DNA of 11,396 nt. Source: an uncultured cyanobacterium. Lineage in GTDB: Bacteria > Cyanobacteriota > Vampirovibrionia > Gastranaerophilales > Gastranaerophilaceae. The notes below the pieces were generated by a model that had not been told where the DNA came from, made no database searches, and worked only from the letters and a program-made list of their open reading frames with translations. The stretch is taken from assembly GCA_947073895.1 (NCBI GenBank), contig CAMTNN010000036.1, forward strand, positions 1 to 11,396. The letters run 5' to 3'. Shown here one piece after another: positions 409 through 11,396 of the stretch; position 1 is the first letter of the stretch, and every line of letters begins with the position of its first letter. Position numbers and translations under genes: made by a program.

Positions 409-1479
409 ATGTTTTTAAAAAAGACTAAGACCAATATGGAATCGGAAATTGCTGAACAGGCGAAGATTATTCCTTATATTTTGTTTTAATATATTGACCC
501 TGTTAGTGGCGAGATTAAGTTGAATCTTCCGCAGGGTATCAAAAAAATTGTTCTTGTTGCATCAGGTTCGTCTTATCATTGCGCGCGTTTCGCGGTTGAT
601 TTGGTTGAAAAAATTTCCAAAATTGAGACAAGAGCTATTTATTCGAGCGAATTCTTGTTGAAAAATCTTATCCCGCATGATGAAAACACCCTTTATATCT
701 TTATTACTCAATCAGGTGAAACCAGCGACACACTTAAATCAATTGAGCGGGTGAAGACGGAAACAAACCTCCCGACTCTTTGTATTACAAATGTTGTTGA
801 TTCGTCTATCTGGAAGGCTTGTGATTACCAGGTAGCGTGTTATGCAGGTGAAGAGACAGGAATCGCGGCTACAAAATCTTTTACTTCTCAAATGCTTTGT
901 TTGATTTTGATTTCGCTCAAACTTATTGAGAATACAGGATTGGAAACAAACGAATATAAAAAATCACTTTTCCATTTAGGCGCTATTGTTGAAAAAGCTT
1001 TAGCTAAAAGAGCAGAAATAAAAAGATTCGCTAAACATTTAGCTAAAGAAAATATTGTTATCATAACAGCAGATGGAATTTCTTATTCTTTAGCCAAAGA
1101 AGCTGCGCTAAAGATAAAAGAAACTTCTTATAAAAACATTAGTGCAGCTATTTTGGGCGAATTTATGCATGGTCATGTTGCTGTTTTAAATAACAAATCG
1201 ACTTTGATTTATATTTCGGTGCATAAGATTTCTGAACGCTCGGTAAGCAATATTAATAAAATCAAAGCTGATTATAACCCTACTATTGCTGTAATTGGAC
1301 CTTCCGATGAAAGATTGACACCGGATTATCATATAAATATTGAATGCGAAAACGAGATACAACAATTGTTTGCAAACGTAGTTGTATCGCAGCTAATAGC
1401 GCTTGAAACAGCGCTTAAACTAAAACGCAATGTGGACAGCCCGAAAGGACTTCATAAAGTTGTGGTAGAAAAAATCTAA
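409..1479 (+). pseudogene. GlmS-like SIS-domain sugar-phosphate isomerase with in-frame TAA
   Basis: This matches the isomerase half of GlmS (fructose-6-phosphate to glucosamine-6-phosphate) as two SIS domains, without the N-terminal glutaminase domain, so it belongs to the stand-alone SIS isomerase/deaminase group. From the ATG at 409 it encodes the usual entry motif 'TNMESEIAEQ' (GlmS: xxMxKEIxEQP), then TAA at 487-489. The same frame resumes without shift through 'SGSSYHCA' (sugar-phosphate loop), 'TQSGETSDT' and 'GIAATKSFTSQ' to the end. The three GlmS catalytic positions survive: Glu in 'KIKETSY', His 16 residues later in 'EFMHGH', and Lys in the C-terminal 'GLHKVV'. Restart from TTG 520 would give 319 residues with both SIS domains but no entry helix. 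It ends 4 bases inside the convergent gene. Cause: a recent nonsense mutation, a base-call error, or a shortened functional product. Exact substrate is uncertain (GlmS-like, AgaS-like or FrlB-like). Confidence 0.75.
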
Positions 1480-5321: not shown

Positions 5322-5567
5322 TTATAAAGTATCTACGTAATTATCAATTTCTGTAAAATCAAAGAAATCTGTAACTCTAATTCCAAGTCCTGCACAAATT
5401 TTAGCAACGGTTCTTATTTTAGGTTCTTTCATATAACGACATATTTCGCTGAGCCCGCCTTTTGATATTCCGCTTTGCAAAGCAAGCTGTTCTTTAGTCA
5501 AACCGCTATTATTGCATAAGTCTATTATTCGTTGGCATATTATTTTATCAAGAACCTTGTCTGTCAT
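5322..5567 (-). CDS. XRE-family helix-turn-helix regulator, overlapping the permease gene
   Basis: An 81-residue single-domain Cro/C1-type DNA-binding protein. The HTH spans about residues 10-68: 'RIIDLCNNSGLTKEQLALQSGISKGGLSEICRY' gives helices 1-3, 'KEPKIRTVAKICAGLGIRVTDFF' gives the last two. The short acidic tail ('TEIDNYVDTL') has no effector domain. AGGTGG (in AAAAGGTGGAAAA) immediately precedes the ATG at 5567. The first 20 bases overlap the end of the sugar ABC permease gene, so the two are one transcript and the regulator is probably translated by coupling. This resembles other small XRE proteins of low-GC gut bacteria. The target is unknown; control of the permease operon itself is the simplest idea. 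It is convergent with the PLD gene, separated by 16 bases with no hairpin terminator. Confidence 0.85.
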   Translation of the reverse strand: MTDKVLDKIICQRIIDLCNNSGLTKEQLALQSGISKGGLSEICRYMKEPKIRTVAKICAGLGIRVTDFFDFTEIDNYVDTL

Positions 5568-6396
5568 TTTTCCACCTTTTCTGTAACAATGTTAATGCAA
5601 AAATTACTATAAACAAAATATACGCCAGAGCGCAAGATTTTCCTATATCAAAGTATTCAAATGCGTATTTGTAGATGGAATATACTATAACATTTGTTGC
5701 ATCTTTAGGACCGCCTTCTGTCATAACATAGATTAAATCAAATACCTGAAATGATGAAATTGCAGTTACTAAGGTTACAAAATAAGTCGTTGGTTTTAAA
5801 AGCGGAAGCGTTATTTTAAAGAATGTATCTTTCTCACCTGCTCCGTCTATTTTTGCAGCTTCGTATAAGTTTTGATTAATTGCGGAAAACCCTGTTAAGA
5901 ATAATACAACGTTATATCCAATGAGTTTCCAAACCGATACAAAAATCAATACCGGCATGGCAAGCTTGGTATCGAAAAGCCAGTTAAGATGTGTGTGGAA
6001 TAATATATTTACCCCTCCGATATTCGGGTCAAAAATCCAGCTCCAAACGATTGCAATAACAACCGCGGGGGTTATAAACGGGATAAAATAAATCGTTTTA
6101 AACCATTCTGAAAATCGAAGTTTTGTGTTAAGAATACTTGCCAGAACAAGCGGAATTATTACTGCAAAAACTGTAACGGATATTGCGTAAACAATTGTGT
6201 TTAATAGTATTTGAAAAAAAACGGGTTCCGTAAAAACAGATTTATAATTATCTAAACCGACAAATTTAATGTTATTCAGTAAATCCCACTCTGTAAAACT
6301 TAATCCAAAAGAGCAGATAATCGGAATTATAATGAAAATAAATGTTCCGATAAGAGCAGGTAAAACAAAAAATATGCCGACTTTATTATTGTTCAT
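5548..6396 (-). CDS. Carbohydrate ABC transporter permease (MalF/UgpA-type)
   Basis: A 282-residue inner-membrane permease of the MetI-like fold, CUT1 sugar type, with six membrane spans (about 8-30, 62-88, 100-121, 146-170, 202-226, 253-272). The cytoplasmic coupling helix (EAA motif) is clear at 179-201, 'EAAKIDGAGEKDTFFKITLP', and 'TEGGPKDAT' (226-234) is the conserved loop of MalF/UgpA homologues. It would form half of a heterodimeric channel with a MalG/UgpE-type partner and a substrate-binding protein. None of these is present: it is followed directly by an XRE regulator and preceded by the divergent phosphohexomutase. The partner genes must be elsewhere in the genome, or the protein is a remnant. 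No Shine-Dalgarno is seen before the ATG at 6396, and only 31 bases separate the two divergent start codons. Substrate (oligosaccharide, glycerol-phosphate or similar) cannot be told. Confidence 0.9.
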   Translation of the reverse strand: MNNNKVGIFFVLPALIGTFIFIIIPIICSFGLSFTEWDLLNNIKFVGLDNYKSVFTEPVFFQILLNTIVYAISVTVFAVIIPLVLASILNTKLRFSEWFKTIYFIPFITPAVVIAIVWSWIFDPNIGGVNILFHTHLNWLFDTKLAMPVLIFVSVWKLIGYNVVLFLTGFSAINQNLYEAAKIDGAGEKDTFFKITLPLLKPTTYFVTLVTAISSFQVFDLIYVMTEGGPKDATNVIVYSIYKYAFEYFDIGKSCALAYILFIVIFALTLLQKRWKNDRQGS

Positions 6397-9432: not shown

Positions 9433-10164
9433 TTAGCCGACTGTGCTATTTTTGAATTTTATATAAATCGGATTGTATGTTAATGTTGGCCTGTTTGGGC
9501 AAATGTTATTGTATGCGTTTTCAAACTTGGACAAATCTTTTTTTGTCCAGCTTTTGTTTTCAATAGCATTAACTCCCGTAAGCTGTAAATGTTTTAAAAC
9601 ATCTTTAGGAGAATTAAACGCCATTATATGAATCTCCGGTAAAATTTCGCTTTGAGGGAACATTTTTTCAAGTTCCTGCGGTGAATAATAATCAAGAGCT
9701 GTGCCTGTAATTAAGCCGATTTCTCTAAAATTTTCTCTGCCGAAAGTTGAAACAATAAGTTCTCCGTTTTCTGTAAGTTTTTGTTGCAGCGTTTTTATTG
9801 TTGCTTCAAAATTCTCAACCCACTGTAATGACGCGTTTGAGATTATTAAGTCGTATTGGACTGTATTGTTGGTTACGAAATTTTCAATATCATCATTAAT
9901 GAAATTAATTTCAGAGTTAATTTTATCAATATAGTTTTTGCATTCTTCTACAATATCAATGGCTGTGTAGTTTTCAAATTGAAATTTTTCGTTGATTAAT
10001 TCTGTCAATAATCCTGTTCCGCAGCCAATTTCCAGAATGTTTGAGTAAGAACTGTTATTTAGTATACTAACAAGTTTTTCTGCCATTTTTTTTTGAATTC
10101 TGGCATTATCATCATAAGTCGATAATGATTTCGAAAAACGAGCTTTGATTAAATCTTTATTCAT
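9433..10164 (-). CDS. bioC: Malonyl-ACP O-methyltransferase
   Basis: A 243-residue class I SAM-dependent methyltransferase that methylates malonyl-ACP (or malonyl-CoA), letting it enter fatty-acid synthesis as the primer for the pimeloyl chain of biotin. BioC hallmarks: 'ARFSKSLSTYDDNARIQKKMAEKL' at 8-31, SAM motif I 'NILEIGCGTGLLTELI' (42-57), the acidic residue of motif II in 'AIDI' (68-71), 'SNASLQWV' (109-116), 'GLITGTALDYYSPQELEKMF', 'HLQLTGVNA' (192-200) and the closing 'LTYNPIYIKFK'. The true start is ATG 10164, which overlaps the bioG stop as ATGA and has GGAG nine bases upstream; a longer frame from 10245 only reads through bioG sequence. It pairs with bioG: BioC adds the methyl ester and BioG removes it from pimeloyl-ACP methyl ester. 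Confidence 0.93.
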   Translation of the reverse strand: MNKDLIKARFSKSLSTYDDNARIQKKMAEKLVSILNNSSYSNILEIGCGTGLLTELINEKFQFENYTAIDIVEECKNYIDKINSEINFINDDIENFVTNNTVQYDLIISNASLQWVENFEATIKTLQQKLTENGELIVSTFGRENFREIGLITGTALDYYSPQELEKMFPQSEILPEIHIMAFNSPKDVLKHLQLTGVNAIENKSWTKKDLSKFENAYNNICPNRPTLTYNPIYIKFKNSTVG

Positions 10165-10760
10165 AAAAGCTCGCTCCATTTTTTGAAAAGTGAAAACGGA
10201 CAATGTCCTGATTTCAGGTTTGGTTCTATTTCCCAAAATGCGCACTGGCTCTTTGTCGGGATGATTTTGTCATTATCACTTATGAAAACTTTTGTGTATC
10301 TAAAACTTTCGTTAGCTGTATATTCTTTAATCGCAGATAATTCGCTTTTCTGATTCTCTAAATCCCGTGTAATTGAAATTTCTTGAGGCTCAGAAAACAT
10401 ATTTTGAATAAATTTTTCGCGTCCTTTTTCGTTGAATCCTCTGATTGTCAAATCATAAATCTTAGGATGAATCCCAAATTCTGTATCAATAGGTTTCAAT
10501 GTCCCGTTTACAGCAGTTGCACTTTTTACTCCAAAATCGAATTTTGAAGCTATCATAACGCCCATTGACCAGGCAATTAAATATTTTTCTTTATAGTTTT
10601 TAAGAATAAAATCAGTTTCAAGATTGTTGTAGTCATAAAACATAACAACATCATAATCTTCTGTATCAAGATGATTTACAACTGCTTCATCCATTCCCCA
10701 GCCGTTGAAGAATATAATCAGTTTATCGTTATTAATTCTGTTCAGCCATTTATATTTCAT
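10161..10760 (-). other. bioG: BioG unit: pimeloyl-ACP methyl ester carboxylesterase, probable native gene
   Basis: This is the part of the chimera I would annotate as the native gene. It begins at ATG 10760 ('MKYKWLNRINNDKLIIFFNGWGMDE' in two stretches: first strand, then the 'FNGWGMD' oxyanion segment typical of BioG). Within this unit the nucleophile is Ser65, the acid Asp164 and the base His186. The bases just upstream hold no Shine-Dalgarno, but TAA (10770-10768) in another frame shows that a preceding gene, normally bioF or another bio gene, could have ended here with translational coupling. That expected neighbour is not present; the mannanase fragment stands in its place. Confidence 0.75.
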
Positions 10761-11264
10761 ATAATTTTTATAACCGTCGCGAAGAGGGAGGGGTGCTTCT
10801 CCGTGACCTGTCCATTCAAGATATGTGCCATATCCGCCGCTCCATTCCCAGGCATTGTTTAAGTAGATTACGGCACGCATGTCACGCTTTTCGAGCTCGG
10901 CGATGAGATAATCGAGCCCTTCGAGAATATCTTGATTATACACACCGGGCTCGGTCTGAAGAGTAGGCTCTATATGGGAAGGTATCGAGCGGTTGCCGTC
11001 ACCTCCGGCGAGTATTCGAAGATTATCAATGCCTATAGCCTGGAGGGAGTCAAGCTCTTCGGCAAGACGTTGGCGGTCGCCCCCTTCGCCTTTGGATCCA
11101 AGTATTGCGCCATACCAGAAATAAGGGCCGGCATACTTATAAGGATGGTTGCGAAGAATGAAATCTCCGTTCTCAGACACGGTTACAAAATCATTGGCTC
11201 GAACAGTGAAATTTGCGATTGCCATGATGAACAATAATATCGAGAATTTGATTTTTTTTGACAT
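10161..11264 (-). CDS. bioG: Chimeric frame: GH5_7 mannanase N-terminus fused to complete BioG esterase
   Basis: One open frame of 367 residues joins two unrelated proteins. Residues 1-165 or so are a secreted GH5_7 beta-mannanase start with a signal peptide. From Met169 on is a complete BioG (DUF452), the alpha/beta-hydrolase that cleaves the methyl ester of pimeloyl-ACP in biotin synthesis. BioG's catalytic triad is intact: nucleophile in 'AWSMG' (Ser233), Asp332 in 'SDNDKIIP' and His354 in 'SGHCPF'. The BioG part from ATG 10760 is 199 residues, within the family's usual size, so nothing of it is lost. A signal peptide on a cytoplasmic ACP esterase makes no functional sense, and the DNA composition changes at the same point. 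An artefactual join of two genomes is therefore the leading explanation, a real fusion or transfer event the alternative. BioG's stop overlaps bioC's start as ATGA. Confidence 0.8.
   Translation of the reverse strand: MSKKIKFSILLFIMAIANFTVRANDFVTVSENGDFILRNHPYKYAGPYFWYGAILGSKGEGGDRQRLAEELDSLQAIGIDNLRILAGGDGNRSIPSHIEPTLQTEPGVYNQDILEGLDYLIAELEKRDMRAVIYLNNAWEWSGGYGTYLEWTGHGEAPLPLRDGYKNYMKYKWLNRINNDKLIIFFNGWGMDEAVVNHLDTEDYDVVMFYDYNNLETDFILKNYKEKYLIAWSMGVMIASKFDFGVKSATAVNGTLKPIDTEFGIHPKIYDLTIRGFNEKGREKFIQNMFSEPQEISITRDLENQKSELSAIKEYTANESFRYTKVFISDNDKIIPTKSQCAFWEIEPNLKSGHCPFSLFKKWSELL
10761..11264 (-). pseudogene. GH5 subfamily 7 beta-mannanase, N-terminal fragment
   Basis: The first ~168 codons of a secreted endo-beta-1,4-mannanase of Bacteroidales type. 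It has a signal peptide ('MSKKIKFSILLFIMAIANFTVRA', cleavage near residue 23) followed by GH5_7 features: 'YKYAGPYFWYGAILGSKGEGG' (43-63), 'LDSLQAIGIDNLRILAGGDG' (71-90), 'IEPTLQTEPGVYNQDIL' (98-114) and 'YLNNAWEWSGGYGTYLEW' (134-151). A full enzyme is usually 400 residues or more; both catalytic glutamates (the NEP acid/base and the later nucleophile) lie beyond the break, so this piece cannot be active. The absence of a Shine-Dalgarno before ATG 11264 and the richer G+C fit a Bacteroidota source and contrast with the rest of the window. Confidence 0.82.
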
Positions 11265-11288
11265 TGATTTATGGTGGTTAAATTTGGT

Positions 11289-11377
11289 AAAGAGGTTAAT
11301 AAGATTAAAGAGGTTAATGATTCAACTTTCGCATGCGAAAGTTGAGGGTTATGAGGTTATAAGGTTAAAAGGTTAAT
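11289..11377 (+). repeat. AGGTTAA-type short direct repeats flanking a palindrome
   Basis: AAAGAGGTTAAT occurs exactly at 11289-11300 and again at 11307-11318 (18-base period). After the palindrome come further variants: GAGGTTAT (11353-11360), AAGGTTAA (11361-11368) and AAGGTTAA (11369-11376), the last two being exact neighbours at 8-base spacing. The pattern suggests replication slippage in a simple-sequence intergenic region rather than a coding function. Confidence 0.6.
11323..11344. repeat. Perfect 22-base palindrome
   Basis: CAACTTTCGCA (11323-11333) is followed without spacer by its exact reverse complement TGCGAAAGTTG (11334-11344). It is far too long to be chance in 132 bases. It could be a site for a dimeric protein or the footprint of a dispersed repeat; without a loop it is a poor RNA hairpin terminator, and no T-run follows directly. 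Confidence 0.75.
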
Positions 11378-11396
11378 CTACAATTGTGGATAGATT

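What the first reader, a model, noticed from the sequence alone, without database searches (positions are those of the whole stretch)
10161..11264. In-frame fusion of a secreted mannanase start to a cytoplasmic biotin-pathway esterase
Residues 1-165 are GH5_7 with a signal peptide and no catalytic glutamates; from Met169 the frame is a complete BioG with Ser/Asp/His triad, followed by bioC with an ATGA overlap. The join falls exactly at BioG's own start, so both parts keep frame. A real fusion would be a cross-phylum event that puts a Sec signal on an ACP esterase, which seems non-functional; an assembly chimera of a Bacteroidales and an AT-rich gut genome is more probable. Either result matters for anyone using this contig.
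Basis: partly seen in the sequence, partly recalled or inferred. Interest (0 to 1): 0.7.

Follow-up and report, generated by a model that had tools for sequence, protein, structure and literature searches.

The report
Chimeric contig end, not gene fusion
The apparent fusion of a sugar-digesting enzyme to a biotin-making enzyme is almost certainly an artefact: the last 645 bases of this contig are a near-identical piece of a different gut bacterium's genome stuck onto an ordinary biotin gene.

Summary
The ORF at 10161-11264 (-) is real as letters: residues 1-168 are the front of a secreted GH5 mannanase/mannosidase, and from Met169 it is a complete BioG followed by bioC with an ATGA overlap. 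It is almost certainly not a real gene. The window is the whole contig, and its terminal 645 bp (10752-11396) match a Porphyromonadaceae (Muribaculaceae-like) MAG contig, CAMTMX010000013.1, at 642 of 645 bases. Identity stops abruptly inside the shared codons ATG-AAA-TAT. In that MAG the mannanase runs on to full length. The last ~77 bp of the window are a dispersed repeat of that genome, which probably explains why the contig stops there. The bioG side is native: 19 of 21 congeners searched have an unfused bioG, and none of 57 congeners searched has the mannanase. No fused protein is among the 120 best of 6,526 protein hits. A short identity at the join (at least 9 bp, at most 17 bp seen) explains the kept frame. 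Verdict: inter-species chimera at a contig end; BioG truly starts at 10760. Reads were not available, so a very recent real recombination is not strictly excluded.

The parts
10752..11396 (-). Foreign tail: Porphyromonadaceae/Muribaculaceae DNA carrying the 5' part of a GH5 mannanase/mannosidase gene and its upstream region
   Evidence: 642 of 645 bases identical to L005 (CAMTMX010000013.1), mismatches at 10769, 11123 and 11126; the match ends at 10752
10752..10768 (-). Join zone. AAAATTATATGAAATAT is shared by window and L005; its last 9 bases, ATGAAATAT, are also the start of bioG in 12 of 14 congener loci compared. The breakpoint cannot be placed more finely
10761..11264 (-). 5' part of the GH5 mannanase ORF (residues 1-168: signal-peptide-like start plus N-terminal barrel part, no catalytic glutamates)
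   Evidence: signal peptide by eye, no predictor run
11320..11396 (-). Copy of a ~77-bp dispersed repeat of the Muribaculaceae-like genome G037; probable reason why the contig ends here
   Evidence: dozens of matches in G037, at least four within 20 bases of a contig's first base; in G000 only this place and a 24-bp match of the stretch to its own reverse complement
10161..10760 (-). bioG, complete and native (199 aa + stop), pimeloyl-ACP methyl ester esterase by family
9433..10164 (-). bioC, malonyl-ACP O-methyltransferase by family, overlapping bioG by ATGA

Best explanation
The 367-aa 'fusion' is an artefact at a contig end: DNA of two organisms joined during assembly or, less likely, during library making. 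The start of bioG of the AT-rich bin organism was joined to a fragment of a Muribaculaceae-like genome, presumably present in the same sample. The join runs through a short identical stretch (ATGAAATAT at least, AAAATTATATGAAATAT at most) that reads M-K-Y in the same frame in both genes, so the open frame survives by accident. The foreign piece runs on to a dispersed repeat of its own genome, where the contig stops. In the real organism bioG starts at ATG 10760, is cytoplasmic and works with bioC in pimelate synthesis; in the real Muribaculaceae-like organism the mannanase runs on to full length. Shown: near-identity of the tail, abrupt breakpoint, repeat at the end, unfused relatives of both halves. 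Inferred: that the join was not made in a cell, that both organisms shared a sample, and that short reads were used.
For: Tail 642/645 identical to L005, ending at 10752. L005 carries the full-length gene: its protein aligns with 1uuq over residues 25-420. The window is the whole contig C36 and the foreign part is its last 5.7%. The last 77 bp are a multi-copy repeat of L005's genome, with copies at other contigs' ends, and have no other copy in G000. The rest of the mannanase was not found in G000. 0 of 57 other genus genomes searched hold the mannanase at E<=1e-10, while 19 of 21 congeners searched have a bioG in an open frame of 199-239 aa. No fused protein among the 120 best of 6,526 hits. 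G+C of the 504-bp mannanase stretch (47.4%) exceeds all 3,845 overlapping interior 504-bp windows of 60 other G000 contigs (max 45.2%). In 200,000 random placements between the two parents 0.005% reached 9 shared bases and none 12, so a join guided by short identity fits.
Against: No reads or coverage could be examined. The native sequence upstream of bioG in this genome was not found: UPF0047 and pnp, its neighbours in G009 and G014, gave no match in G000 (no positive control in those calls, and the bin is 83.6% complete), so the true continuation cannot be shown. In the survey of contig ends C36's foreign end passed the 99.5% G+C threshold only at the 500-bp size (0.426; 5 of 811 interior windows are as rich), because its last ~130 bp are AT-rich; 6 other ends passed at one or more sizes, and these looked like ordinary genes or a lysine riboswitch, so chimeric ends were not shown to be widespread. 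The random-join control used sequence drawn from everywhere, not start codons, and is only a rough yardstick.
Confidence: 0.96

Rival explanations
1. Sub-case of the best explanation (its odds are contained in the 0.96, not added): a molecular chimera formed before sequencing (ligation, PCR or whole-genome amplification joining two templates through the short identity), faithfully assembled, instead of an assembler misjoin.
For: The join has a short identical stretch, as template switching would give. Everything that supports an artefact fits equally.
Against: General knowledge: a single chimeric molecule rarely gains enough coverage to win over the true path in an assembly, though a thinly covered contig end could carry it. 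Not separable here without reads.
Confidence: 0.1
2. A real, very recent recombination put Muribaculaceae-like DNA next to bioG in this strain and created a secreted fusion protein, or a silent in-frame run-through with bioG still started at its own ATG.
For: The frame is open across the join and each part is intact up to it.
Against: Would need transfer of DNA 99.5% identical to a present-day Muribaculaceae-like genome, with the contig ending inside that donor's own repeat. 0 of 57 congeners searched have it and no fused protein was among the 120 best hits. It would put a Sec signal on an ACP esterase and leave half a barrel.
Confidence: 0.03
3. An old, functional gene fusion of mannanase and BioG.
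For: Only the uninterrupted frame.
Against: 99.5% DNA identity to the unfused gene, a G+C and GC3 step at the join, no relative with the same architecture among the 120 best hits, missing catalytic glutamates.
Confidence: 0.005

Closest known systems
BioG (PF04301), e.g. HI_1552 (PDB 5gng/5h3b)
   Same: Residues 169-365 match the Pfam profile 1-212 of 213, and residues 10-198 of the BioG part align with the solved structure, with the Ser, Asp and His positions kept; upstream of bioC with overlap
   Different: Here it is preceded in frame by mannanase sequence; none of the BioG hits that I saw has that
Bacteroidales GH5 mannanase/mannosidase (L005 gene; P0001, P0003; structure 1uuq)
   Same: Residues 1-171 are identical to the L005 protein except three residues (47, 48 and 166)
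   Different: Cut at residue ~171 of 423 or more, before both catalytic glutamates
BioG-BioC fusion of Bacteroides fragilis (PMC3494674; passages seen)
   Same: A genuine, tested fusion that involves BioG
   Different: There BioG is fused to its pathway partner; here bioC is separate and the partner is unrelated
Chimeric contigs in public assemblies (PMC10978663; two passages seen)
   Same: Sequence of two organisms joined in one contig
   Different: This one happens to keep the reading frame

Membership tests
BioG esterase | Pfam PF04301 above its gathering score over the whole profile | tested here: met
   110.6 bits against 27; profile 1-212 of 213
BioG esterase | Ser, Asp, His positions kept against a solved BioG | tested here: met
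   Aligned to 5gng; that BioG proteins keep these residues is from PMC3494674 passages
BioG esterase | bioC directly downstream | tested here: met
   TIGR02072 198.8 vs 184.95 bits; ATGA overlap
BioG esterase | Hydrolyses pimeloyl-ACP methyl ester | not testable with these tools
   needs an assay
GH5 mannanase/mannosidase | Sequence similarity to solved GH5 mannanases | tested here: met
   N-part only: 1uuq 6.5e-33; no Pfam match for the N-part. Subfamily GH5_7 was not tested
GH5 mannanase/mannosidase | Both catalytic glutamates present (NEP and EEFG regions) | tested here: not met
   Both lie after the join in P0001, P0003 and the L005 protein; the window protein has BioG there
Real mannanase-BioG fusion family | Same architecture in other genomes | tested here: not met
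   None among the 120 best of 6,526 protein hits (7,996 candidates sharing most words were scored); mannanase in 0 of 57 congeners searched; exact junction pattern in 0 viral contigs.
Inter-species contig chimera | Each side near-identical or syntenic to a different genome with an abrupt switch | tested here: met
   Tail 99.5% to L005 up to 10752; bioG side closest to congeners and in the same order bioG-bioC-kinase-pgm as in G009 (G009's kinase and pgm recognised by eye)
Inter-species contig chimera | No reads span the join, or coverage steps there | not testable with these tools
   no reads held

The most novel reading that the evidence does not exclude
A strain-specific, very recent in-cell recombination between a Muribaculaceae-like chromosome and this AT-rich gut bacterium, at a short identity, created a real in-frame secreted mannanase-BioG protein.
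Probability: 0.02. Interest if true: 0.5.

Novelty: not a real feature. Interest (0 to 1): 0.08.

Why it matters
It is a worked example of an artefact that passes as a protein: a join at a short identity kept the frame and sits exactly on a start codon, so a gene caller would produce a plausible two-domain secreted enzyme. Anyone using this contig should cut it at about 10751-10768 and restart bioG at 10760; the mannanase should not be credited to this genome. Beyond that it is ordinary.

Tried and rejected
Real fusion: rejected because no relative with both parts was seen and because of near-identity to an unfused gene.

The missing neighbour of bioG at another contig end of G000: in two of five congener loci inspected (G009, G014) bioG is preceded by a UPF0047 gene and pnp (Pfam on the G009 copies), with secA (by eye) further up. 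UPF0047 and pnp gave no match in G000 (no positive control in those calls). secA was found near the low end of C92, which at first looked like the partner contig, but the C-terminus of secA is on C113, followed by other genes. C92 is therefore not the neighbour, and I dropped that argument.

Widespread chimeric ends in this bin by G+C: 60 contigs chosen by number (C26-C86 without C36) plus C36, 122 ends. C36's end passed the 99.5% quantile of interior windows only at 500 bp. Six other ends (C42, C49, C61, C71, C76, C85) passed at one or more window sizes and look native (two adhesin-like repeat proteins, a phosphoglycerate mutase, an alcohol dehydrogenase and a flagellar-type protein, named by eye; a lysine riboswitch). 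No general claim is made.

Plasmid origin of the region: no match among 72,556 plasmid records. Junction in viral contigs: 0. Pfam did not recognise the N-part or the L005 mannanase in this copy; its identity rests on PDB matches and on full-length relatives P0001 and P0003, which carry a precomputed label PF26410. No call named the organism of G000.

The start of the SIS-domain gene was corrected from 410 to 409.

Full report
What is there. The window is the whole of contig C36 (11,396 bp) of a 210-contig genome bin of 1.52 Mb, 83.6% complete. The frame 11264..10161 (-) is open for 367 codons. Its first part matches GH5 mannanases/mannosidases with solved structures (1uuq, E 6.5e-33; 4lyp, 3e-28). 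Its second part, from Met169, matches the BioG profile from position 1 to 212 of 213 (110.6 bits) and the BioG structure 5gng with the Ser, Asp and His positions in place. bioC follows with an ATGA overlap at 10164-10161 and passes the curated BioC cut-off.

The mannanase half. A scan of genome contigs with the closest full-length relative, P0001, gave 43 loci. One of them, L005 (CAMTMX010000013.1, titled as an uncultured Porphyromonadaceae MAG; the next closest loci L002 and L004 are titled Muribaculaceae, L003 Porphyromonadaceae), matches the window from 11396 to 10752 at 642 of 645 bases, with differences at 10769, 11123 and 11126, and then stops matching. L005 carries the gene at full length: its protein aligns with 1uuq from residue 25 to 420, including the NEP and EEFG regions. 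A search of the window's own genome with P0001 found only this truncated place, and 0 of 57 other genomes of the genus searched have a match at E<=1e-10.

Why the contig ends where it does. The 757-base query 10640-11396 gave 55 matches in L005's genome G037; apart from the full one they all fall in its first 96 bases, that is, in the last ~96 bases of the window. Some are ends of other contigs (C115:1-77, C120:1-75, C40:3-87, C63:18-94). In the window's own genome the stretch has no other place; a 24-base part matches its own reverse complement. A dispersed repeat of the donor genome is a place where contigs of that genome would be expected to break.

The bioG half. Of 21 congeners searched, 19 have a bioG match, the best in each at 57-72% identity and in open frames of 199-239 aa; G005 and G016 have none. 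In G009 the order bioG-bioC-sensor kinase-pgm is the same as in the window (G009's kinase and pgm recognised by eye, those of the window by Pfam). Upstream of bioG the five inspected congeners differ (UPF0047 and pnp in G009 and G014; other genes, named by eye, in G010, G003 and G008), and none of the five genomes has the mannanase. The Muribaculaceae-like genome's own BioG-like match is only 36% identical and lies on another contig, so bioG here is not its gene.

The join. Window and L005 share AAAATTATATGAAATAT (10768-10752). My start pattern found 14 of 19 congener bioG loci; 12 of the 14 share ATGAAATAT at the start codon with L005, up to 12 bases in all; two (L045, L061) share other stretches of 7 and 9 bases. 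Both genes read ATG AAA TAT in the same frame. In 200,000 random placements between the two parents 0.005% reached 9 shared bases and none reached 12. A join guided by short identity explains both the position on BioG's start codon and the kept frame, without selection. The mismatch at 10769, directly before the shared stretch, may already belong to the native upstream of bioG; this is a guess.

Composition. The 504 bases coding the mannanase part have 47.4% G+C, above every one of 3,845 overlapping interior windows of 60 other contigs of the bin (maximum 45.2%); the bioG part has 32.5%, like the other genes of the window (31-35%). Measured from the contig end, the contrast is weaker: the last 500 bp have 42.6%, reached by 5 of 811 interior windows, and the last 100-300 bp are not GC-rich.

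Search for independent copies. The whole-protein search reported 6,526 proteins among 7,996 scored candidates and listed the best 120: two mannanases (448 and 435 aa) and 118 BioG proteins (201-240 aa); none has both parts. A fused protein should have ranked first; the window's own was not listed either. An exact junction pattern found nothing in viral contigs, and the region has no match in plasmids.

Other irregular ends in the same bin. secA is split: the C92 copy follows the G009 and G014 genes to about 200 bp from the contig's low end and then continues in unrelated sequence of 25% G+C; C113 begins with about 112-119 bp of 58% G+C sequence before a stretch alike to the secA C-terminus. 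These look like two more misjoined ends, but their sources were not traced. A survey of 122 contig ends by G+C found no further clear case.

Conclusion. The fusion is an inter-species chimera at a contig end (0.96). Whether it arose in the assembler or in the library cannot be told without reads. BioG should be annotated from 10760, and the foreign end (about 10752-11396) left out of this genome.

Noticed in passing
G000:C92 (L082:1-200) and G000:C113 (L084:1-119): secA is split over two contigs of the same bin, and both ends carry unrelated sequence (25% and 58% G+C): two further probable misjoins.
   Followed up: partly
409-1479 (+): A SIS-domain gene has an in-frame TAA at 487-489; the frame is otherwise open from ATG 409 to 1479, with a TTG at 520 as the first start after the stop. 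Either a nonsense mutation, a sequence error, or the gene starts later.
   Followed up: partly
11123-11126: Two changes four bases apart turn the G-T-N-F-W motif of the mannanase (L005, P0001, P0003) into G-P-Y-F-W; two clustered non-synonymous changes in otherwise near-identical DNA look like consensus error or a minor strain.
   Followed up: no
11320-11396; copies in G037 (L066-L072): A ~77-bp dispersed repeat with dozens of copies in a Muribaculaceae-like genome, containing a 24-base stretch that equals its own reverse complement; nature not examined.
   Followed up: no
L147: The Muribaculaceae-like genome's own BioG-like match lies in a 454-residue open frame, as a BioG-BioC fusion of the B. 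fragilis kind would; the second domain was not tested.
   Followed up: no
G004, G007, G012, G015, G017, G019: Six of 21 congeners have a second, weaker BioG-like match (32-41% identity) besides the main bioG; role not examined.
   Followed up: no
5322-6396 (-): A lone ABC-transporter permease gene (Pfam BPD_transp_1) is followed by a small helix-turn-helix-like gene (by eye) overlapping its end by 20 bases; no partner transporter genes were seen in the window.
   Followed up: no
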